Shown here piece by piece: positions 2,379 to 13,584 of a stretch of DNA of 64,000 bases (position 1 is its first letter; every line of letters begins with the position of its first letter). Made by a program: the position numbers and the translations under genes. Under the pieces are notes generated by a model that ran no database searches, was not told the origin of the DNA, and saw nothing but the letters and a program-made list of their open reading frames with translations. This DNA comes from Acinetobacter sp. 10FS3-1 (GTDB lineage Bacteria > Pseudomonadota > Gammaproteobacteria > Pseudomonadales > Moraxellaceae): positions 1,302,001 through 1,366,000 of the forward strand of contig NZ_CP039143.1 of the NCBI RefSeq assembly GCF_013343215.1. Reading direction: 5' to 3'.

Positions 2379-2888
2379 ATGTCATCCAGAACGCCATATA
2401 AGGTGTTATGTGTCTGTTTGGGAAATATTTGTCGCTCTCCCACGGCAGAAGTGGTACTCAGACATTATTGTGATGCAAGGAAACTCAACATTGTGGTCGA
2501 TTCAGCTGGCACCAGTAATTATCATCCGGGCAAGGCACCCGATTTGCGCAGTCAGCAACATGCTTTAAAGCGTGGCTATGACTTATCTAGCTTACGGGCA
2601 CGTCAGCTGACTATTCAGGACTTTCTTGAGCATGACCTGATTCTGGCTATGGATTTGGAAAACCTGTCTAATATTCAAGACTTGCAAGCCAAGGCGGAAG
2701 CCCAATTCGGTGCTTTACGTGCCCGTACTGCCTTGATGAGCGAGCATGATCAGGACTATCCACAGCAGGCCTTACCCGATCCTTATTATGGAGGTGCTGA
2801 GGGCTTTGAGCGTGTGCTGGATCAATGTGAGTCCAGCAGCAAAGCTTGGGTCGAGATTTTTCAACAGCATCAAAGCAGCCAGGTTTAA
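2379..2888 (+). CDS. Low-molecular-weight protein-tyrosine phosphatase
   Basis: 169 residues from the ATG at 2379, which has GAGG at 2369-2372; a TTG four codons earlier is possible but less likely. The P-loop CLGNICRS (Cys13 nucleophile, Arg19) matches CX5R-S, and DPYYGG near residue 130 supplies the general-acid Asp. The family dephosphorylates phosphotyrosine, and in bacteria often partners a tyrosine kinase in capsule export. No capsule genes lie nearby; instead it is followed after 3 bp by murB, so a housekeeping role in this unit is more likely. Confidence 0.9.
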   Translation: MSSRTPYKVLCVCLGNICRSPTAEVVLRHYCDARKLNIVVDSAGTSNYHPGKAPDLRSQQHALKRGYDLSSLRARQLTIQDFLEHDLILAMDLENLSNIQDLQAKAEAQFGALRARTALMSEHDQDYPQQALPDPYYGGAEGFERVLDQCESSSKAWVEIFQQHQSSQV

Positions 2889-2891
2889 GTT

Positions 2892-3926
2892 ATGCAGATT
2901 CAAACTGAAGTTCAGCTTAAATCCTTCAATACCCTGAATCTTGACGCGGTGGCTTCTTATTATACGGAAATTCAGTCGACGGATGATCTGACTGTTGCAC
3001 TGGATTTTGCAGCACAGCAGCAGCTGAATAGTTTAATTCTGTCAGGCGGCAGTAATATGCTCTTACCTGAACGCATCCATGCGCTGGTATTGCATATGAA
3101 TATCCGCGGAATTGAACTGCTGCATGCAGATGAGCACCATCAATTTCTACAAGTTGGCGCAGGTGAAGTGTGGCATGATTTTGTGCTCTGGACCACTGCA
3201 CAGCAGCTGTATGGGTTACAGAATCTGGCGCTGATTCCCGGACGTGTCGGTGCCTCTCCGGTACAGAATATTGGCGCTTATGGGGTTGAGGTCGGCGAGT
3301 TTATCGACTCGGTACAGGTATATGATCGCCAGACCAAGCAGTTTGGGTCAATTGCTGCGGCAGATTGCCAGTTTGCCTATCGGCATAGTATTTTCAAAGA
3401 TGACCCGACTCGTTATGTCATTACGCACGTCACGTTTAAATTACTCAAACATGAAGATCTGAAACTGAATTATGGAGATCTGAAGACTGCGGTAGGTGAT
3501 CATCTCACTGCAGAAAATCTGCAACAGCAGGTGATTGCCATCCGCCAAAGCAAATTGCCTGATCCTAAAGACTATCCTAATGTGGGAAGTTTCTTTAAAA
3601 ATCCGGTGGTGGATCAGACAGATTTTGACCAAATTGCAGCAAATTTCCCGCATTTACCCCATTATCCGCAGCCTAATGATCGGGTTAAAATAGCGGCAGG
3701 CTGGCTGATTGATCAGGCGGGCTGGAAAGGTAAACAGCTGGGGCCGGTAGGGATGTTTCATAAACAGGCACTGGTACTGGTGAATTATGGTCAGGCATCG
3801 CTGAAAGATGTGCAATATACATATCATGCGGTACAACAGGCAGTCTGGGCACAATTTAGGATCATGCTAGAGCCGGAGCCGGTATTATTTGATATAAATG
3901 GCTTAATCCGTTCTCATCAAGGATGA
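2892..3926 (+). CDS. murB: UDP-N-acetylmuramate dehydrogenase (UDP-N-acetylenolpyruvoylglucosamine reductase)
   Basis: 344 residues, the type I (E. coli-like) length. FAD-binding signatures are visible: LSGGSNMLL near residue 52, [17 protein letters not shown] near residue 115, and [11 protein letters not shown] near residue 230 with the catalytic Ser that protonates the substrate. A C-terminal LEPEPVLFD segment contains the conserved Glu. MurB uses NADPH to reduce UDP-GlcNAc-enolpyruvate to UDP-MurNAc, the second committed step of peptidoglycan synthesis, in the cytoplasm. It follows the phosphatase by 3 bp and precedes the YdcF gene by 8 bp, so the genes are likely cotranscribed. Confidence 0.97.
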
Positions 3927-3934
3927 ATAATTAA

Positions 3935-5074
3935 ATGAAAAACACCTTTTGGATGGTCCGTCTGGTACAGCTAATCACGGGATTGTTTGTGCTGTTCGGC
4001 TGTTTGCTGGTGTTATTCTATTCGCCTTTTTATTCGCATCTGGTGGTTAAGGGACTCAATCAGTTTGTATCTCTGGAAGTGAATGAAGTTGCGGCACAAA
4101 GCCAAAAAATGGCTGCTCTGAGTGAGCATGAAACACTGGAGCCAGGCTCTGATTTATGGATTGCCCGTCAGGCTTATTTACAGGTAATCGAGCAGGATAT
4201 TCAGCAAAATAACTCAGCTAACCTAGTGCTGATTCAGGCCCGTTATAAAGCGTTGCAGCAGCTAATCGAAGACTACCAACGTCAACAGCAGGAAGAAAAA
4301 GCTGAGCAAACTCCTCCGCCGCAAGTGCCGTTATTGCCCACTCAGGCCGTCGCTGTGGAAATTAGTGATCCCACCGAAAATGTCCGCCAGTTACTGGAAT
4401 GGGACAGCAATGAAAATAAAGAGCGTATAGAGCAGTATATCGAGTTTTTGACTACTCATTCTTTGGAGCAGGAAGAAGCCAGCGCAGCAGAACTGGTGGA
4501 CGAGAAAGCCATCCAGCAGGAGCTGGCATTGTTACAAGATCAGCAACAAAAGCCACTTAATAACGCCAAACCTTATGCAATTGTAGTGGTGGGTGGTGGT
4601 TTGACGCTGGACGAAAATGGCAAAGATATAGTGGTTAATAATTATACTCGACTGCGTTTGGAAACAACCCTAGAAGTTGAAAAACGCTTTCAGTTGCCGA
4701 TTGTATTAAGTGGCGTTGAAGCACCTTATATGCAACGCTGGCTACAACAATATGATGTCGATGCCAAACTGCTTGAAGATCGCAGTATGAATACTTGTGA
4801 GAACAGTCGCTTTAGCTCGTTATTATTACAAAAAAAAGGTGGAGCACCGACAGTGATACTGATTACAGACCGTTATCATATGCCGCGTACCCGCCGTTTA
4901 TTTGCATTAAACGGAATTCAGACCATTCCGGTAGAAGCACCAATGCCGACGTCATTAACCAGATGGCGTCCAAGTACACAAAACTATGATCATAGTCGCC
5001 GGGCCAATTATGAACTGTTGGCCACCATACGCGATGTGTGGTTCGGATCCAGTGACTGTCGGGAGGTACCATAA
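3935..5074 (+). CDS. YdcF/ElyC family (DUF218) membrane-anchored protein
   Basis: 379 residues. A hydrophobic segment at residues ~8-30 predicts an inner-membrane anchor, followed by a Gln/Glu-rich coiled region (~45-190) and a C-terminal DUF218 fold (~205-350). Conserved positions seen are IVVVGGGLT, RLRLETTLEV, PIVLSGVEA, DRSMNTCENSRFSS and LITDRYHMPRTRRLF. The family includes ElyC and SanA, linked to envelope integrity; the reaction is not established. The position after murB fits an envelope role. Its stop codon shares one base with the start of the next gene (TAATG). Confidence 0.8.
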   Translation: MKNTFWMVRLVQLITGLFVLFGCLLVLFYSPFYSHLVVKGLNQFVSLEVNEVAAQSQKMAALSEHETLEPGSDLWIARQAYLQVIEQDIQQNNSANLVLIQARYKALQQLIEDYQRQQQEEKAEQTPPPQVPLLPTQAVAVEISDPTENVRQLLEWDSNENKERIEQYIEFLTTHSLEQEEASAAELVDEKAIQQELALLQDQQQKPLNNAKPYAIVVVGGGLTLDENGKDIVVNNYTRLRLETTLEVEKRFQLPIVLSGVEAPYMQRWLQQYDVDAKLLEDRSMNTCENSRFSSLLLQKKGGAPTVILITDRYHMPRTRRLFALNGIQTIPVEAPMPTSLTRWRPSTQNYDHSRRANYELLATIRDVWFGSSDCREVP

Positions 5075-6120
5075 TGTCTGATATTCCATTTTTAAATCCT
5101 GCAATCCTAAAACAGCTTGACCTGCCTGTACCGAGCCGGGACATTACGCCGCAATTATTAGAATCGCTGAATTTAAACCGGCTAGACGAGCAGGTATCAC
5201 CTGATTTGCAGTCCTATCGCAAGTTATATGGCTTTGATTCACTGGATTGTAAACACTGGCAGGGCTATATCGAAATGCCACTGTTCAGGCTGCATGTTCA
5301 GGTCTTTGAGCCTCATCTGGAAAATACCCGTTTTGACAAGATACAGGGTACGGCTTTTTTATTACATGGCTATTTGGAACATAGCGGAATCTATCAGCCG
5401 ATTGTACGGGAACTGCTGGAACAGGGGTTTAGCGTACTGACCTATGATTTGCCGGGGCATGGGCTGAGCGATGGTTCACCGGCCAGCATTCAGAATTTTG
5501 ACCATTATCAGCAGGTCTTGCATGCCGTGTATCATTATGTCAAACATGCAACGCAATTACCGAAGCCTTGGGTTGGTATTGGACAAAGTACCGGTGGCGC
5601 GATCTGGATGCATCACTTATTGGAATTTGCAGAACGCCGCGAGAATCCTTTTGTGGATCGTGTGCTGCTGCTCTCTCCACTGATTCGTCCAGCCAAGACA
5701 GCCTGGTGGCATAATCCGCTTGGACTGGGAATTATTAGTCGGATTAAGCGTGAAGTGCCACGGCATTTTAGACGGAATAATCATAATCCGGAATTCCTGC
5801 GTTTTATCCGTTTAAAAGATCCTTTGCAGCCCCGTATGATGGGGATGGACTGGATTCTGGCCATGTCGCGCTGGATGCTGGAAATGGAAGAGCGTCCAGC
5901 TTGCCGTATTCCGGTCTGGCTAGCGCAGGGTGCGCAGGATCAGACAGTGGACTGGCGTTATAATATCGAGTTTATCCGGCGTAAGTTCCGTTTGCAGACT
6001 CTATTGATGCTAGAAGAAGGTTCGCATCAGCTGATTAATGAGCGTGCGGATATACGGGCAGCCTTAACAGGTCTTATTCCGGCTTTCCTGCATGCGCATG
6101 GCAGCAAAACTTATTATTAA
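5074..6120 (+). CDS. Alpha/beta hydrolase, lysophospholipase-like
   Basis: 348 residues. The alpha/beta hydrolase core begins near residue 85 with AFLLHGYLEHSG (oxyanion HG), then LTYDLPGHGLSDG. The nucleophile elbow GIGQSTGG (Ser near residue 170) departs from the standard GxSxG only in spacing of flanking glycines. A late Asp (AQGAQDQTVDW) and His (EEGSHQLIN) complete a plausible triad. The resemblance is to the serine-aminopeptidase/PldB group. A strong Shine-Dalgarno (GGGAGG around 5061-5066) sits inside the end of the YdcF gene, and the two overlap by one base. Substrate is unknown. Confidence 0.8.
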   Translation: MSDIPFLNPAILKQLDLPVPSRDITPQLLESLNLNRLDEQVSPDLQSYRKLYGFDSLDCKHWQGYIEMPLFRLHVQVFEPHLENTRFDKIQGTAFLLHGYLEHSGIYQPIVRELLEQGFSVLTYDLPGHGLSDGSPASIQNFDHYQQVLHAVYHYVKHATQLPKPWVGIGQSTGGAIWMHHLLEFAERRENPFVDRVLLLSPLIRPAKTAWWHNPLGLGIISRIKREVPRHFRRNNHNPEFLRFIRLKDPLQPRMMGMDWILAMSRWMLEMEERPACRIPVWLAQGAQDQTVDWRYNIEFIRRKFRLQTLLMLEEGSHQLINERADIRAALTGLIPAFLHAHGSKTYY

Positions 6121-7863: not shown

Positions 7864-8478
7864 TGTGATTTTATTTCCCTGAGTCTACATAGGCTTTATC
7901 ATGTACAAACCAAGGGCTGAGATACAAGCAGAGAATTGTTGTTTAATTTTATAGGCTTATTGTAATAGCCCTGAATCAAGGAAAAGCTGGATAGATAATA
8001 GCGAGAAATTTTGCAGAAATTATTCTAAGGGAAAAACTCTATAAAATTTATGTATTTTTGATATTACTCTCAAAGAATGAACTATGGTTATACATAGTAC
8101 ATGGCAATATTAAAGATGAAAATGACACCTCAAAAATCCATTCATTTGAATGATGCAGAACTGACCTGTCTATAAGTCATGCTAGGTGTTTAGTGCCGGC
8201 ATTTCCTGCAATGGAACAAATTCAAAACTTCAGGTTCATCTGTCCGTGGTTTGCAGAGGGACCCGTAGGGACTCAGCTGCTTGGATTGTTTTTGAGTCTG
8301 CGGCCAAAGTTGTATACAGGCATAAACTCAGCAAGGTGAATGCATAATTGAGTACGATCGTCATACTGGAACCGTTTGACGGCAGCTTCCTCTCTTCTCA
8401 TGGATTATTGATAAAGCAGACAAAGACAATAGATGGGTTTGCTGGCCGATTGATCAAACCCAGATAATCAAAAAATAT
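7864..8478. other. Gene-free stretch with possible coding relics
   Basis: No open frame longer than ~30 codons has a credible start. Translated fragments on the plus strand look protein-like but break repeatedly, for example TPQKSIHLNDAELTCL near 8130-8175 followed by a stop, and VRGLQRDP then LSAAWIVFESAAKVVYRHKL near 8240-8335. I could not match these to a family. The stretch probably contains a worn-out gene. Confidence 0.35.
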
Positions 8479-8500
8479 AGTCCCCAATAGGGGACTTTTT
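8479..8500. terminator. Intrinsic terminator beside the WYL regulator
   Basis: AGTCCCC (8479-8485), loop AATA, GGGGACT (8490-8496), followed on the plus strand by TTTTA and on the minus strand by ATATTTTTT. It can end transcription of the WYL gene (minus) and anything arriving from the left. Confidence 0.65.
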
Positions 8501-8533
8501 ATACTATGGGATTTTTAAAGTTGAGTGGATATT

Positions 8534-9544
8534 CTATTGAGAATCCTGACTATCAAGCTGATAAACTGCATTCGCTACAGTGGTAGGCTCTATCTGTTTG
8601 ATTTTTTTTCCAAAGCTGCGTAACCACCAGGTCAGTTGCGAAGTAAAGGGGACAGTCGCACTGATCAGGAACATGCCATTTTCCAGCTTTTCAATTTTTT
8701 GGTCTTTGCTGAGCTGGCTTTCTTCAAAATAGTGGGCATCTACCTCATCCATGGTCAATTTCAGGGTGACATTTTCAGTTGGATGGTTGAAGTCGACGCG
8801 AAAGCCCAGTGCCCCTGATTCAATATAATCATCAATATCAAAATTTACAGGATGCAAAGCACGGGAATTTAGCACAATTGCGGATTTAAAGCGGTGCAGG
8901 GCAAAGGTTTGAATATCGGACTTATCATGACGGGTACAGACCAGATAAATAATTGAACCTTTTTGTACCAAAGCCAGTGGATTCAGAATATAGGTTTTTT
9001 CCTCACTTTGAAGACCACGGCCCTGATAGATACATTCCAGTTGCTTGTCCTGTAATAAAGCTTCATAAATGGCTTGCTGGGCGACCTTATCGACAAAAGG
9101 CGGAATCAGTGGTTGGGTGGCCGGTACAATCCGGACCCGGTTGATCCATTGCCGGACATTATTTTGCGAAGAAAGACTACGTCGCGCCAGATCAAACCAG
9201 GGATTCATTTCATCAATCAGGCTGGGCGGTAGCAAATGCTTCAGGTGTTCTTCTACCATCATAAAGGTTACAGCCTGCGAGCTGGTCATATGAGGCAAGC
9301 TTTGAATAGGAGCATCTGAACGCCAGCGCCAGCCTTGGGGTGTCGTTTTACTGCTTTCAATCGGAAAGCGCTGGGCAATCTGGTTTAAATCACGCTGAAT
9401 GGTCCGCAAGCTGATTTCAATGCCTTCACGGTTCAGGATTTCCTGTAATTCACGTGTTCCCATCCATTTACCGGTAGAAAGACGCGACAAGATTTGCCAT
9501 TGGCGATAAAGGCTATTCGAGGTTTCTTTTTCTTGTGCTGACAT
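8534..9544 (-). CDS. WYL-domain transcriptional regulator (HTH + WYL)
   Basis: 336 residues. The N-terminal winged HTH spans ~10-65 (TRELQEIL and ISLRTIQRDLNQI are the recognition parts). A WYL domain follows at ~135-225, with TYILNPLALVQKGSIIYLVCT and FALHRFKSAIVL as recognisable strands, then a WCX-like C-terminal extension to ~330. WYL proteins are ligand- or nucleic-acid-sensing regulators of many processes, including defence and DNA damage. It faces away from the decayed ATP-grasp locus, so it may once have regulated that cluster; this is inference from position only. Confidence 0.85.
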   Translation of the reverse strand: MSAQEKETSNSLYRQWQILSRLSTGKWMGTRELQEILNREGIEISLRTIQRDLNQIAQRFPIESSKTTPQGWRWRSDAPIQSLPHMTSSQAVTFMMVEEHLKHLLPPSLIDEMNPWFDLARRSLSSQNNVRQWINRVRIVPATQPLIPPFVDKVAQQAIYEALLQDKQLECIYQGRGLQSEEKTYILNPLALVQKGSIIYLVCTRHDKSDIQTFALHRFKSAIVLNSRALHPVNFDIDDYIESGALGFRVDFNHPTENVTLKLTMDEVDAHYFEESQLSKDQKIEKLENGMFLISATVPFTSQLTWWLRSFGKKIKQIEPTTVANAVYQLDSQDSQ

Positions 9545-9646
9545 AATATATTTTACTGGCTATCAATAGGACAAGTGTAGATCAAGAGAGTAACACAATA
9601 TGAAATCCGCATTTTTTTCGCAAGTCATTCTGCGCAACAAAGGTTC

Positions 9647-9652
9647 TATAAT
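9647..9652 (+). promoter_or_regulatory. Candidate -10 element facing the decayed ATP-grasp locus
   Basis: A perfect TATAAT occurs 102 bp from the WYL start and points rightward. No good -35 hexamer stands at 16-18 bp, so activation by a regulator would be needed if it is used. It could be the former promoter of the peptide-ligase cluster. Confidence 0.25.
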
Positions 9653-9769
9653 ACAAAAACTCAGGTTAGAGACGAAATTAATTCAGACCCTGTAATTATC
9701 AAAGTAATTAAGCTCCGCCCTTCGCAACTTTTATACCAGCAGTTGCCTTTAAAAAGTTATCCATAAAAT

Positions 9770-10738
9770 ATAGCCAGATTCGCAGGATTAATGTGATCTG
9801 TGATTCCACGGCCGAATGAGTCATGCTCGAAGATAATTTAAGAACATCTTTCGAAGTTGTCGAAATGATAAAATACCTGAAGATAAGTCAAAAATTAAAG
9901 CCTAAATTATTTGAACAGTTTCATGTTTTTAGCACGGAAATAATCAAAATTATTAAAAGGGATTCTGATTGAAAGAGCTGATACTGACCGGTCTTTGGTG
10001 GTGGTCTTAATATCGGTTACTATAACAGCGCATATTATGAACTGTTTTTCTGGCAAGAGTAATAGATAGGCTCTTGGTAACATCGCGTAACCTTTTTGTG
10101 GGAAGCATGAAGGTTTATGTAAAAACCATAGGTGGCTATCATCTAGTTAATGTTATTTATAAATGTATCGATGGTGTATCTTGATTTTTTACTTTAAAGC
10201 AGAGAGGAACTAAGGTACTCCCAATTTAATGGTAATCTGTTTATAGCATCATATTGTAATTGCCCATGCATCAAGAGCAGGGGCAGTAAATGATAAATCA
10301 ACCTTCCCTATATCGATAGCATAATCGGATCTTATTTGGATGAGACAGTACTTGTCAAAATGTTCTGAGCTACCAAAGTCCTCAGGCAAAATATGTGAAA
10401 TATATTTCGTCTTGTGGAGCTTAGTGGATCGTGAGAGCAGCTTAAGGTTTGGGTCACTGAATACTGGTCGGGCGACTGGCTTCTAAGCAGTCAATTGAAA
10501 TATTTAAAATATTTGGAATAAGAATCTTGGTTAGCCTGTATCTTTATAGTGTGCAGCCTACTTTGAAATTAGTTCTAAATAAAATAATTCAATATCAATA
10601 TTTTAGAGCACCTTATTGATTTACATTTTTTAAGTTCAGTTTAGTGCGCTGAAATAGTATCGAGCAGTTTAACGCGATAAGCGATCTCTGGTGGTAGTTT
10701 ATCCTAAGGGTAAGGAAAAAAATATGGGAGTAGTTGAC
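9770..10738 (+). pseudogene. Circularly permuted ATP-grasp protein (type 2), decayed
   Basis: No long ORF exists here, yet translated fragments line up in order with the circularly permuted ATP-grasp family that sits beside alpha-E genes. LEDNLRTS is at ~9826-9849 (family: LEDNLRxPSG). YYNSAYYELFFWQE is at 10018-10059 (family: NSAYxEHxFLAxxMG). MKVYVKTIGGYHLVNVIY then CIDG is at ~10107-10175 (family: VDVIYRRxDD). PYIDSIIGSYLDETVLVKMF is at 10306-10365. SLYLYSVQPTL is near 10530-10565 (family: YxAQPTLxLS). A tail resembling the GGxKDTWVVD ending runs into 10738. Multiple stops and frame changes separate the pieces, and the first ~130 codons are missing. The call rests on remembered family motifs, but their order and spacing make chance unlikely. 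Confidence 0.75.
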
Positions 10739-10771
10739 AATCTGCATTCACAGCCAACGAAGGAAAACGTC

Positions 10772-11374
10772 ATGGTCTTGTTGAATACCAATGCGCAGCA
10801 TATTTTTTGGTTAGGTCGATATTTATCTCGAACCCAGTTTTTATGTTCGCATTTTCCATTTCTGGATGATGAGGCGGCACTTAATTATGCTCATGCCTTT
10901 TGCCTACCGGCTTTTGATGCCAGTTCGTTAAATGAGTTAATCCTGGATGCGAAGCAACCCGCTTCTTTCAGGTACTATTTTAAGCAAGCTCAGGAGAAGA
11001 TTCAGAAGTTACGGGGAGTTTTATCAGCCAGCGCCTATTCAGAACTGAGCAGGCTGATTAAAACTACTCATGAAAATGCTGCTTATATCTGTGATGTTGT
11101 TCATGATTGCGAAGATGTCTTGGAGGCAGAATCCCCGGATATCTTTTTATTTTTCAGCTTGGGCCAGTCTTTAGATCAACTGGATCAACAGCTACGTTTA
11201 GCCATAGACACTCAAAAGACCTTAACTAAAATTGATTATCTTGTTGAAACTTTAGTTGAGATGGGATGGGAAGATTTGGAAGAATACTGGCAGCAATTAC
11301 GCCGTACACCGAGTTCCATCCAGTTTTATCAGTTCAGTGATCATATTCATCAGTTATTCGAGGCTGATCTCTAA
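10772..11374 (+). CDS. Alpha-E domain protein (DUF403)
   Basis: 200 residues from the ATG at 10772, which has GAAGGA at 10759-10764. A longer frame starting at 10691 exists, but its extra N-terminus (KGKEKNMGVVDN) is the tail of the preceding ATP-grasp relic. The start NAQHIFWLGRYLSRTQFL matches the ENLYWLGRYxERAE opening of alpha-E proteins. The rest is predicted all-helical, with YFKQAQEKIQKLRG and DQQLRLAID as later conserved-looking helices. Alpha-E proteins accompany ATP-grasp ligases in predicted peptide-synthesis clusters; their reaction is unproven. At 200 residues it is shorter than the usual ~300, so partial degeneration is possible. Confidence 0.75.
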   Translation: MVLLNTNAQHIFWLGRYLSRTQFLCSHFPFLDDEAALNYAHAFCLPAFDASSLNELILDAKQPASFRYYFKQAQEKIQKLRGVLSASAYSELSRLIKTTHENAAYICDVVHDCEDVLEAESPDIFLFFSLGQSLDQLDQQLRLAIDTQKTLTKIDYLVETLVEMGWEDLEEYWQQLRRTPSSIQFYQFSDHIHQLFEADL

Positions 11375-11690
11375 TTGAAGGTGAACCGACTTATTACAGG
11401 CGATATGCTATTGGTTTTGAAGCTACCATTTCTGCATGTATCTTGTTTAAGTCGAAATAGGTGTGCTATGCGATATTTTTGAGGCCCATCATTTGGTAAG
11501 TCATGCTTGGGCAGAAGTATAAATTAAGAAAAAGTAGTATTGTTTTGATATTAGTCATCAGCTGTGTAGGGCAAGTACCGAGGTGTATATTGCCGCTGGT
11601 TGGGATGATCGGGATGTAACCCGCACGCAGGGTAAGGGAAAAGGAGGAGAGGAATCTATGTATTCTATCTTCCAGATATTAGGCTGTTAA
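11375..11690 (+). pseudogene. Transglutaminase-like protease gene, 3' remnant
   Basis: Between the alpha-E and Anbu genes two fragments in different frames match the C-terminal half of bacterial transglutaminase-like proteins. IFEAHHLVSHAWAEV, followed by a stop, lies at 11475-11519 and contains the catalytic-His motif SHAWAEV. Then VYIAAGWDDRDVTRTQGKGK and GGEESMYSIFQIL run through ~11583-11682 and end at a TAA at 11688-11690; these resemble the AxGRDxxDVxPTRG...GGGxE ending of the family. The part carrying the catalytic Cys is not recognisable. About one third of the normal gene length remains. Confidence 0.75.
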
Positions 11691-11703
11691 CAGGAGTCAA
11701 ATA

Positions 11704-12438
11704 ATGACCTATTGTTGTGCGCTACGTTTAGAACAGGGAATGGTTTTTATTAGTGACACTCGAACCAATGCGGGTGTGGATCATATTTCAGTATTTCGTA
11801 AACTATATACTTTCGGGGTGGATGGAGAGCGTCTGATTGTGGTTCAAGCCTCGGGAAACCTGGCGACAAGCCAGGCGGTGATTGGTCACATTAAAAACCA
11901 TCTGGAGCTGAAACAGGAGCCGAATATACTCAGTTTGCATACCATGTTTGATGTGGCAGAGCTGATTGGCAGTATACTGAAAAAAGTCATCGCCAATGTT
12001 ACTGAGGATGTGCAGGAGCAAAGTACCTATTATTGTAATTTGCTGGTGGGCGGACAGATTAAAGATCAGGAAATGCAGCTTTACCATATTTATCCGCAAG
12101 GTAATTTTATTTGCTCGACAACGGATACGCCATATTTCCAGATTGGAGAAAGTAAATACGGTAAACCGATTCTGGACCGCGCTTTGACCTATGATATGCC
12201 ATTAGATGAGGCGCTGCGTTGTTCTCTCATCTCCTTTGCCTCAACTTTACGTTCTAATGTATCTGTGGGAATGCCACTGGATGTGCTGGTGTATAAAAAA
12301 AATAGTCTGATGATGCCGAAGGGTAAGCGGATTGCAGAAGATGATAAGTATTTTACTGATATTAGCCGTCAATGGTCGGAAACTTTAAAAAAGGGTCTGG
12401 CAGAATTACCGACGCCTTCAAGTGAGTATTTTCTTTAA
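11704..12438 (+). CDS. Proteasome-type peptidase (Anbu / bacterial proteasome homologue)
   Basis: 244 residues, the normal length for Anbu. The protein begins MTYCCALRLEQGMVFISDTR: after Met removal Thr2 becomes the N-terminal nucleophile, and SDTRTNAG is the conserved segment holding the catalytic Asp. GERLIVVQASGNLATSQAV and LLVGGQI are further family signatures. Anbu proteins form self-compartmentalising rings related to HslV and 20S beta subunits, and their genes cluster with ATP-grasp, alpha-E and transglutaminase genes. Here two of those partners are broken while this frame is intact. It ends at a strong terminator. Confidence 0.9.
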   Translation: MTYCCALRLEQGMVFISDTRTNAGVDHISVFRKLYTFGVDGERLIVVQASGNLATSQAVIGHIKNHLELKQEPNILSLHTMFDVAELIGSILKKVIANVTEDVQEQSTYYCNLLVGGQIKDQEMQLYHIYPQGNFICSTTDTPYFQIGESKYGKPILDRALTYDMPLDEALRCSLISFASTLRSNVSVGMPLDVLVYKKNSLMMPKGKRIAEDDKYFTDISRQWSETLKKGLAELPTPSSEYFL

Positions 12439-12460
12439 TAAGTAATAGAATGATCTCGGA

Positions 12461-12497
12461 CAATACAAAGCCCAACTCAAGGTCGGGCTTTGTATTG
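12461..12497. terminator. Bidirectional terminator between Anbu and alr
   Basis: CAATACAAAGCCC (12461-12473) pairs with GGGCTTTGTATTG (12485-12497), a 13-bp perfect stem. It lies between two convergent genes. Confidence 0.75.
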
Positions 12498-12513
12498 CTG
12501 ATAAAATTTATGT

Positions 12514-13584
12514 TTACAGCACTTTACGTCGTGGGCGGTTGGTCAGACGGCAAAGCAGCTCATAACCAATGGTGCCATTGGCTTCAGCCACATCATCCAC
12601 CAAACGGGTTTGCCCCCAAAGCTCAACCTCGGTGCCTAAGTCTACATTTAAGCCCGTGACCTCAATTGCAATCATATCCATAGCTACGCGACCAATCACA
12701 CGGGTAGTCTGGCCATTAATCGCAACATAGTTTTGTTGAGGGAAAGCACGTGGATAGCCGTCCCCATAGCCAATTGAAACAATGGCTAAATCCATATCTT
12801 GATCAGCGGTAAGGGTTGAACCATATCCCACAGACTCTCCTGCTTTAATTGAATTCAGCGCGATAATTTCTGCGGTAAATGTCATGACAGGTTTTAAGTC
12901 CAGATCATGGATTGTTTTATCTGCAAAGGGGGAGGCGCCGTAAAGCATAATCCCGGGACGAACAAAATCAAAATGTAATTCAGGATACTTATAAATTGCT
13001 GCCGAGTTACAGCAGGAGCCCATGAGCGGCGCACAGTCATTTTTGACTTCAAGGAACTGGCGAATCTGTTCATCATTTAAAGGATGATCAGCATCGGCAT
13101 TGGCAAAATGCATCGCCAGGACGCAATTAAAGCCTTCGGCTTTGAGCTGATGAATAACATCTTTAATGTGCTCAAGTTTAAAACCAAGACGGTTCATGCC
13201 ACTATTCAGTTTAACCCAGACTTTCAGTTTTTTAGCGTTATAGGCCTCTTTATAGGCCAGTAGCCAGTCTAGCTGTTGCGGGTGATGCACAACAATTTCA
13301 ATATTTTGTTCAATGACCACTGGCATTTCATCAACTGAAAAAACCCCTTCAATCAGGGTGATGGGCTGCTGATATCCGAGTTGGCGGATTTCCAGAGCTT
13401 CTTGCAGACAGGCGACCCCGAAGGCATCACTCTCTTTTAAGGCTGCTAAGCAGTCTTTAACTCCATGTCCATAAGCATTGGCTTTGACCATGCTGACGAT
13501 TTTAGCGTTTGGGGCAAGTTGTTTGACACGGTTTAAATTATATTGCAGGGCAGAACTGTCAATATAAACTGTAGCTTGACGCAC
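12514..13584 (-). CDS. alr: Alanine racemase
   Basis: 356 residues. VSMVKANAYGHG near residue 33 carries the PLP-binding Lys, and AGESVGYGSTL near residue 250 holds the catalytic Tyr region. GYGDGYPRAFP and RVAMDMIAIEV are also typical. The start is GTG at 13584, preceded by AAGGAGT. Alr converts L-alanine to D-alanine for peptidoglycan, in the cytoplasm. It lies 41 bp downstream of dnaB on the same strand and is probably cotranscribed with it. Confidence 0.95.
   Translation of the reverse strand: MRQATVYIDSSALQYNLNRVKQLAPNAKIVSMVKANAYGHGVKDCLAALKESDAFGVACLQEALEIRQLGYQQPITLIEGVFSVDEMPVVIEQNIEIVVHHPQQLDWLLAYKEAYNAKKLKVWVKLNSGMNRLGFKLEHIKDVIHQLKAEGFNCVLAMHFANADADHPLNDEQIRQFLEVKNDCAPLMGSCCNSAAIYKYPELHFDFVRPGIMLYGASPFADKTIHDLDLKPVMTFTAEIIALNSIKAGESVGYGSTLTADQDMDLAIVSIGYGDGYPRAFPQQNYVAINGQTTRVIGRVAMDMIAIEVTGLNVDLGTEVELWGQTRLVDDVAEANGTIGYELLCRLTNRPRRKVL

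What the first reader, a model, noticed from the sequence alone, without database searches (positions are those of the whole stretch)
9770..12438. Selective retention of alpha-E and Anbu while ligase and transglutaminase decay
The cluster ATP-grasp / alpha-E / transglutaminase / proteasome-like peptidase is thought to work as one peptide-modifying system. Here the ligase and the protease are dead but alpha-E and Anbu are open, with a good ribosome binding site for alpha-E and an intact Thr2 in Anbu. Either decay is recent, or Anbu and alpha-E have a separate function.
Basis: inference. Interest (0 to 1): 0.75.

Follow-up and report, generated by a model that had tools for sequence, protein, structure and literature searches.

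The report
Anbu and alpha-E outlive their ligase
In an Acinetobacter genome two enzymes of a four-gene cluster of unknown purpose have rotted away while the other two, a proteasome-like protein and a small helical protein, are still protected by natural selection, and some related species show similar splits, so the two survivors probably have a job of their own.

Summary
In an Acinetobacter genome near the A. lwoffii clade the ATP-grasp ligase is a remnant (11 stops, 19 indel runs in 1134 aligned bases) and the transglutaminase is mostly deleted, while alpha-E (200 aa) and Anbu (244 aa) are open and full length for the genus. Recent decay is not supported: on the window's branch dN/dS is 0.50 for the ligase remnant but 0.098 for alpha-E and 0.038 for Anbu, as in full-operon species. 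It is not a one-off: of 175 Acinetobacter genomes six keep Anbu with the ligase dead or gone (four losses plus one import by recombination; two single-frameshift cases not counted), and four keep alpha-E alone (one loss). No genome has a ligase without both. Post-loss selection is strong (Anbu-only crown 0.019, alpha-E-only crown 0.106). The Anbu triad is unchanged in 149 of 149. So Anbu and alpha-E have functions separable from the ligase/transglutaminase half; what these are is not shown. This alpha-E is short and lacks the ER motif. Of 34 Anbu-bearing genomes in other genera 33 have a ligase; the exception is cut by a contig end.

The parts
8534..9544 (-). WYL-domain transcriptional regulator, divergent neighbour of the cluster
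   Evidence: ORF; Pfam WYL 49.2 bits, WCX 33.7 bits; a WYL match lies in 151 of 153 loci read (none in G029 and G077)
9769..10771 (+). Remnant of circularly permuted ATP-grasp ligase gene (pseudogene)
   Evidence: blastn to intact relatives, 11 stops and 19 indel runs, branch dN/dS 0.50 against 0.056 background; PF14403 family of the intact gene
10772..11374 (+). Alpha-E gene, 200 aa, short form, open
   Evidence: branch dN/dS 0.098; confident all-helical model, mean pLDDT 92.8
11375..11703 (+). Remnant of transglutaminase-like gene (pseudogene, most of the gene deleted; the recognisable part is 11481-11687)
   Evidence: tblastn residues 190-259 with 2 stops; 429-base deletion; branch dN/dS 0.42 against 0.053 background
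11704..12438 (+). Anbu gene, 244 aa, catalytic T2, D18, K33 present, open
   Evidence: nearest solved structure 5lox, E 4.7e-83; branch dN/dS 0.038
12461..12498 (+). Perfect 13-bp inverted repeat between Anbu and the convergent alr gene, a candidate terminator
   Evidence: read by eye; not reported by the scan, which allows loops of 3-8 bases only (this loop is longer)
12514..13584 (-). alr (alanine racemase) neighbour, used as a marker of the locus
   Evidence: ORF; orthologue by tblastn; the name alr is recalled from knowledge of the sequence, not given by a call

Best explanation
The four-gene Anbu operon of Acinetobacter is modular. One module, the ligase plus the transglutaminase, was lost as a pair in this lineage. 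Anbu (a Thr-nucleophile hydrolase) and alpha-E (a small helical bundle) were kept by purifying selection because each has a role that does not need the ligase or the transglutaminase. Shown: the loss, its age relative to the branch, the selection on the survivors, and repetition in other species. Inferred: Anbu still acts as a hydrolase on a substrate that does not come from the ligase beside it (for example ordinary peptides or amides), and alpha-E is an adaptor that serves the ligase where there is one and at least one other partner where there is none. I put the modular, selected retention at about 0.85 and this mechanistic reading at about 0.5.
For: Window branch: Anbu omega 0.038 (background 0.052; omega=1 rejected, 2dlnL 56); alpha-E 0.098 (0.103; 40.5); ligase remnant 0.504 (0.056; equality rejected, 87.5); transglutaminase remnant 0.416 (0.053; 17.5). 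Omega=0.5, roughly what half a branch of neutrality would give, is rejected for alpha-E (2dlnL 27) and Anbu (51). Codon-position identities to full-operon G139: ligase remnant 0.66/0.70/0.50, alpha-E 0.76/0.88/0.46, Anbu 0.89/0.96/0.48. Recurrence in 175 genomes: Anbu with the ligase dead or gone in 6 (G000, G034, G036, G098, G146, G172); alpha-E without Anbu or ligase in 4 (G116, G131, G167, G168); each of the 144 other genomes with a ligase match has both. G036 has the window's layout, without a detectable remnant, on another branch. Anbu-only crown omega 0.019 (omega=1 rejected, 486); alpha-E-only crown 0.106, equal to background (omega=1 rejected, 135). T2, D18, K33 in 149 of 149 Anbus.
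Against: Synonymous sites are saturated on the window branch (NG86 gives no finite dS for alpha-E or Anbu against G139) and in the equality fits of the two remnants the branch length ran to its upper bound, so absolute values are rough; the argument rests on contrasts within one branch. The stems, where the loss itself falls, are less clear: on the alpha-E-only stem omega is 0.199 and neither background nor omega=1 is rejected (2dlnL 1.1 and 2.2); the Anbu-only stem has 0.076 against 0.020, perhaps a short relaxation. Alpha-E in ligase-free lineages changes at columns that hardly vary elsewhere, so its role may have shifted; the full-operon brisouii clade shows similar numbers at other columns. 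At the wider cut the window's Anbu also changes 4 of 99 near-invariant columns, reached by 5 of 69 matched controls. 21 of 175 genomes have neither Anbu, alpha-E nor ligase, so the set is dispensable. No expression or biochemistry was available; published Anbu showed no activity on standard proteasome substrates (PMC6376114, passages).
Confidence: 0.75

Rival explanations
1. Recent decay: the whole operon is already useless in the window's lineage, and alpha-E and Anbu have simply not been hit yet.
For: Two of four genes are dead, and 21 of 175 genomes have neither Anbu, alpha-E nor ligase, so loss of the whole set happens in this genus.
Against: The ligase remnant shows 11 stops and 19 indel runs; the same load on the survivors would give about 22 indel runs and 13 stops. 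Omega on the same branch is 0.038 and 0.098. G036, the Anbu-only clade and the alpha-E-only clade are past the stage of remnants detectable by tblastn or still show only one survivor, and are under constraint.
Confidence: 0.06
2. Replacement in trans: the ligase and transglutaminase activities are supplied by other genes in the genome, so Anbu and alpha-E still do their old joint job.
For: Each ligase-free genome has a weak match to the transglutaminase elsewhere, as do many full-operon genomes (162 of 175 genomes match at all; the few weak rows printed have 30-36% identity). ATP-grasp enzymes of other families exist in every bacterium (general knowledge).
Against: No second ligase of the PF14403 family in the 10 ligase-free genomes searched (in G000 only the remnant). 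The distant transglutaminase-like gene is also in many full-operon genomes, so it did not come in to fill a gap.
Confidence: 0.12
3. Editing or clearing role: Anbu hydrolyses the product of the ligase system (its own or that of neighbouring cells), so it is needed wherever the ligase is and still pays after the ligase is gone.
For: One-way dependence: every genome with a ligase match has Anbu, but not the reverse. The Anbu-alr segment of G034 groups with the Anbu-only species while its flanks group with its full-operon sisters, as if the Anbu-only form had replaced a full operon.
Against: No substrate is known. Recombination at alr may have carried Anbu along by chance. Anbu is thought to be an intracellular protein (recalled), and published Anbu showed no activity on standard proteasome substrates (PMC6376114, passages).
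Confidence: 0.12
4. The survivors are kept as DNA or RNA, not as proteins (for example as spacing, promoter or transcript for alr).
For: The locus is short and lies between two conserved genes; alr is convergent.
Against: Omega well below 1 and strong codon-position asymmetry; in 8 of the 17 null genomes with a WYL gene alr sits beside it (about 12-350 bases) without the operon.
Confidence: 0.02

Closest known systems
Four-gene Anbu operon (ATP-grasp ligase, alpha-E, transglutaminase-like, Anbu), credited to Valas and Bourne 2008 and Iyer et al. 2009 (known here only through passages of PMC5666114 and PMC6376114)
   Same: Same genes, same order; 139 of 153 Acinetobacter loci read here have all four open
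   Different: Ligase and transglutaminase are dead in the window and gone in other species, while Anbu and/or alpha-E are kept under selection
Anbu of characterised bacteria (solved structures 5lox, 5nyw, 5loy, 5nyj, 5nyf)
   Same: Clear homologue over nearly the full length (5lox, E 4.7e-83), with the catalytic Thr, Asp, Lys
   Different: Encoded without a functional ligase of the family in the same genome
Alpha-E family PF04168
   Same: Scores over the curated cut-off and sits in the alpha-E place of the operon
   Different: 200 aa instead of about 306-317, 34.6 bits instead of 237-326 bits for the best copy in 33 of 34 genomes of other genera (G302: 21 bits), and the Glu of the ER motif replaced
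Ligase-alpha-E fusion of a neighbouring genus of the same family (G302)
   Same: Same operon with transglutaminase and Anbu behind it
   Different: There ligase and alpha-E are one 808-aa protein, which makes survival of alpha-E without the ligase the more unexpected

Membership tests
Anbu (proteasome-like Ntn hydrolase) | Catalytic triad Thr1, Asp17, Lys32/33 after removal of Met | tested here: met
   T2, D18, K33 in the window and in 149 of 149 Acinetobacter Anbus examined; triad as in PMC6376114 (passages)
Anbu (proteasome-like Ntn hydrolase) | Full-length sequence similarity to characterised Anbu | tested here: met
   5lox residues 1-240 aligned to 2-242, E 4.7e-83; 5 distinct sequences matched, named Peptidase, Anbu or Designed Anbu Protein
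Anbu (proteasome-like Ntn hydrolase) | Open-ring (split-ring) oligomer | not testable with these tools
   Needs protein; the property is from PMC5666114, PMC6376114 and PMC8665760 (passages)
Working Anbu operon | Intact ATP-grasp ligase and transglutaminase beside alpha-E and Anbu | tested here: not met
   Both are pseudogenes in the window; no other PF14403 ligase found in the genome
Alpha-E (PF04168) | Profile score over the curated cut-off | tested here: met
   34.6 bits, cut-off 20.8, profile positions 5-172 of 294
Alpha-E (PF04168) | Conserved ER motif named in the Pfam description | tested here: not met
   Window has S-R where four full-length alpha-Es of other genera (G253, G289, G196, G219) have E-R; their second E-R is D-Q here. 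I therefore call it a short, derived relative of alpha-E
Alpha-E (PF04168) | Full length of the domain | tested here: not met
   200 aa, lacks about the C-terminal third; the other Acinetobacter alpha-Es compared have 200 aa as well
Pseudogene (ligase, transglutaminase) | Frame breaks plus loss of codon constraint | tested here: met
   Stops and indels; omega about nine- and eight-fold over background

The most novel reading that the evidence does not exclude
Anbu is not the peptidase of a synthesis pathway but a clearing or editing hydrolase: cells keep it after losing the ligase, and even take up the Anbu-only form by recombination in place of a full operon, because it acts on a ligase-type product that reaches them by another route. 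Alpha-E likewise has an independent partner, and its columns N76 and R81, each changed in two of the three ligase-free lineages that keep alpha-E, mark the surface that used to hold the ligase.
Probability: 0.1. Interest if true: 0.85.

Novelty: new variant of a known kind. Interest (0 to 1): 0.6.

Why it matters
No function is known for Anbu (stated in PMC8665760, passages), and it has been read as part of one system with the ligase and the transglutaminase (PMC5666114 and PMC6376114, passages). Here evolution has separated them several times, and each survivor is still under selection. That speaks against models in which Anbu only breaks down what its own operon's ligase makes, and it points to species in which Anbu, or alpha-E, can be studied alone. 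It also shows that alpha-E, fused to the ligase in a neighbouring genus, can be kept without it.

Tried and rejected
A conserved motif beside the WYL gene (ACACAATAAAAAACT then TTTGCAAG) was first taken for an operon promoter. It is also beside WYL in some genomes without the operon (G018, G088, G109, G027, G149), and on the minus strand it looks like the WYL gene's own promoter (my reading); dropped. Promoter-like sites in 9500-12600 were no more than in shuffles (7 against a mean of 9.8) and no terminator-like site was found.

The count of unusual alpha-E changes was first inflated by the start codon and an N-terminal length difference (M1, L4), which still sit in the counts. I count only N76K and E135D (window), R81D and D138N (G036), and N76K, R81A, F196L (alpha-E-only clade). 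E197S of that clade dropped out of the list after realignment.

I first counted G034 as an independent loss. Its Anbu and alr group with G098/G172, and its WYL and dnaB with its full-operon sisters, so it is counted as an import. The G034 branch tests, and the place of G034 in the G098+G172 test there, rest on the species tree and are not used; one search repeats the test on a tree drawn after the Anbu gene tree. In the Anbu gene tree the window falls just outside lwoffii plus G170/G133 instead of next to lwoffii; the window tests use the latter only.

Rows dropped: G011 (Anbu near a contig edge) was left out of the locus set by me, so 149 of 150 Anbu-bearing genomes were read. G077 was dropped from the tree (no flank sequence). 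Single frame breaks in G031 and G156 (ligase) and G119 (transglutaminase) may be real or sequencing errors and are not counted as losses. YN00 failed for 5 of 16 pairs and NG86 gave no dS for 3 of 16. Two papers (PMC3235984, PMC3268129) are not held.
Full report
What is there. The window lies in an Acinetobacter genome (G000:C1:1302001-1366000, 3.65 Mb, 100% complete) that branches next to the A. lwoffii clade (support 0.98; named relatives). Between a WYL regulator (8534-9544, minus) and alr (12514-13584, minus) lie a ligase remnant, alpha-E, a transglutaminase remnant and Anbu. In the 21 named relatives fetched the same place holds open frames of the ligase (514-553 aa), alpha-E (200-226 aa), transglutaminase (259-262 aa) and Anbu (244-277 aa, longest frame counted). 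Eight of them compared gene by gene have a 200-aa alpha-E and a 244-aa Anbu, so the window's two survivors are full length.

The dead genes. Against intact relatives the ligase remnant keeps 1134 aligned bases at 61.6% identity to G139, with 11 in-frame stops, 16 deletion runs and 3 insertion runs; the transglutaminase remnant keeps 338 bases with 4 stops and a 429-base deletion. The 5' end of the ligase alignment is weak; blastn aligns only from about 9769. A neutral stretch of the length of alpha-E plus Anbu and the same age would carry about 22 indel runs and 13 stops; both frames are open.

Selection on the survivors. I wrote a branch codon model (MG94 with HKY and F3x4, fixed species tree, ten taxa). 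On the window's terminal branch omega is 0.038 for Anbu and 0.098 for alpha-E, not different from the rest of the tree (0.052, 0.103), and omega=1 is rejected (2dlnL 56 and 40.5). The controls alr and WYL give 0.097 and 0.083. The ligase remnant gives 0.504 against 0.056 (equality rejected, 2dlnL 87.5; omega=1 also rejected, 14.5) and the transglutaminase remnant 0.416 against 0.053 (17.5; omega=1, 4.7). In the two equality fits the branch length reached its upper bound. By simple mixing the ligase drifted for about half of the branch (my arithmetic); half a branch of neutrality in alpha-E or Anbu would show as omega near 0.5, which is rejected (2dlnL 27 and 51). Pairwise NG86 agrees for the ligase (0.32 for window against G139, 0.074 for a full-operon pair), but synonymous sites are saturated for the window's alpha-E and Anbu, so these are contrasts, not precise rates.

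It recurs. Four searches over the same 175 Acinetobacter species genomes find Anbu in 150, alpha-E in 150, the ligase in 145 (the window's dead copy included) and some transglutaminase match in 162 (distant relatives included). Anbu with the ligase dead or gone: the window G000, G036 (with alpha-E), and G034, G098, G146, G172 (Anbu alone, same locus). G031 and G156, whose ligase has a single frame break, are not counted. Alpha-E without Anbu or ligase: G116, G131, G167, G168, at the same locus. G078 lacks only the transglutaminase. The other 21 genomes have neither Anbu, alpha-E nor ligase; in 8 of the 17 of these with a WYL gene, alr lies beside it. All 144 other genomes with a ligase match have Anbu and alpha-E. 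Of 153 loci read in full, 139 have all four genes open (G011 left out).

How many events. A tree of WYL, alr and dnaB (152 taxa) places G036 beside full-operon G001 (0.87), G146 beside full-operon G145 (1.0), G098 with G172 (1.0), and the four alpha-E-only species together (1.0). G034 has full-operon sisters for WYL and dnaB (1.0 each), but its Anbu (1.0) and alr (0.99) group with G098/G172, so it most likely took up the Anbu-only form by recombination. That makes four losses of the ligase with Anbu kept and one with only alpha-E kept. In the window and in G036, genes 1 and 3 of the row are lost while genes 2 and 4 stay, which no single deletion can do. If genes were lost in random sets of the same sizes over these five states plus G078, the chance that one and the same pair goes together in at least five of six is 0.02 (a simple count that ignores gene order).

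Selection after the loss. On a tree drawn after the Anbu gene tree, the Anbu-only clade (G098, G172, G034) has omega 0.019 within the crown (background 0.029; omega=1 rejected, 2dlnL 486), with a higher value on the stem (0.076 against 0.020). The alpha-E-only crown has 0.106 (background 0.109; omega=1 rejected, 135); on its stem 0.199, with neither the background nor omega=1 rejected (1.1, 2.2). G036 has 0.087 for Anbu and 0.153 for alpha-E (omega=1 rejected, 43 and 21), and G146 Anbu 0.039 (11). The Anbu residues T2, D18 and K33 are present in 149 of 149. Near-invariant Anbu columns are changed in the ligase-free species within the range of matched controls, the window being at the high end (4 of 99, reached by 5 of 69 controls at the wider cut). 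Near-invariant alpha-E columns are changed more often than in most controls, with N76 and R81 each changed in two of three ligase-free lineages, but one full-operon clade (brisouii) shows 3-4 changes at other columns, so this is only a hint.

Outside the genus. Anbu is in 35 of 145 sampled genomes of the order, the window included. Of the 34 others, 33 have the ligase family somewhere in the genome and 34 alpha-E; the one without a ligase (G219) has its Anbu on a 3353-base contig that ends just after alpha-E, where the ligase would begin. By the places listed, Anbu is not next to the ligase in at least G188, G199 and G262, and about 20 kb away in G213 and G309. In G302, another genus of the family, ligase and alpha-E are one 808-aa protein. 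The Acinetobacter alpha-E is short and has lost the Glu of the ER motif; it has no clear relative among solved structures by sequence and no convincing fold match.

Reading. Shown: repeated loss of the ligase and transglutaminase, and lasting selection on Anbu and on alpha-E afterwards. Inferred: Anbu hydrolyses something that does not depend on the ligase beside it, and alpha-E has a second partner. Not shown: substrate, partner, expression. Searches of the held library for Anbu with Acinetobacter, alpha-E, ATP-grasp, transglutaminase, proteasome or pseudogene, and for the protein names, listed no paper whose title or abstract start is about this dissociation; the founding papers are not held, so I cannot say that it is absent from print. 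PMC5666114, PMC6376114 and PMC8665760 were read as passages only.

Noticed in passing
L222 (G302:C190:105500-111500), 2802-5228 minus: Ligase and alpha-E are fused in one 808-aa protein, followed by separate transglutaminase and Anbu genes, in another genus of the same family.
   Followed up: partly
L130 (G078) and L053, L055, L057: G078 has lost only the transglutaminase; G034 carries an Anbu-alr segment that groups with G098/G172 while its flanks group with its full-operon sisters, probably a recombination import of the Anbu-only form.
   Followed up: yes
L201-L204 (G131, G116, G168, G167): Alpha-E survives beside the WYL gene in four related species in whose genomes no Anbu and no ligase match was found.
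   Followed up: yes
L090 (G031), L088 (G119), L058 (G156): Single frame breaks in the ligase (G031, G156) or transglutaminase (G119) of otherwise complete operons; early decay or sequencing error.
   Followed up: no
L228 (G199), L229 (G262); also G188, G213, G309: Anbu lies apart from the ligase and alpha-E genes of the same genome in several other genera of the order.
   Followed up: no
window 10772-12438: Third codon positions of alpha-E and Anbu are less like G139 (0.46, 0.48) than those of WYL and alr (0.61, 0.59), while protein constraint is normal; perhaps lower expression or weaker codon bias.
   Followed up: no
G176, G177, G188, G196, G199, G213, G262, G266, G287, G296, G309: A further copy of the ligase family sits in frames of about 835-901 aa that also hold an alpha-E domain, apparently another operon type.
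   Followed up: no
window 7864-8533: About 670 bases without an open reading frame of 60 aa or more between the glutamate-synthase-like gene and the WYL gene.
   Followed up: no
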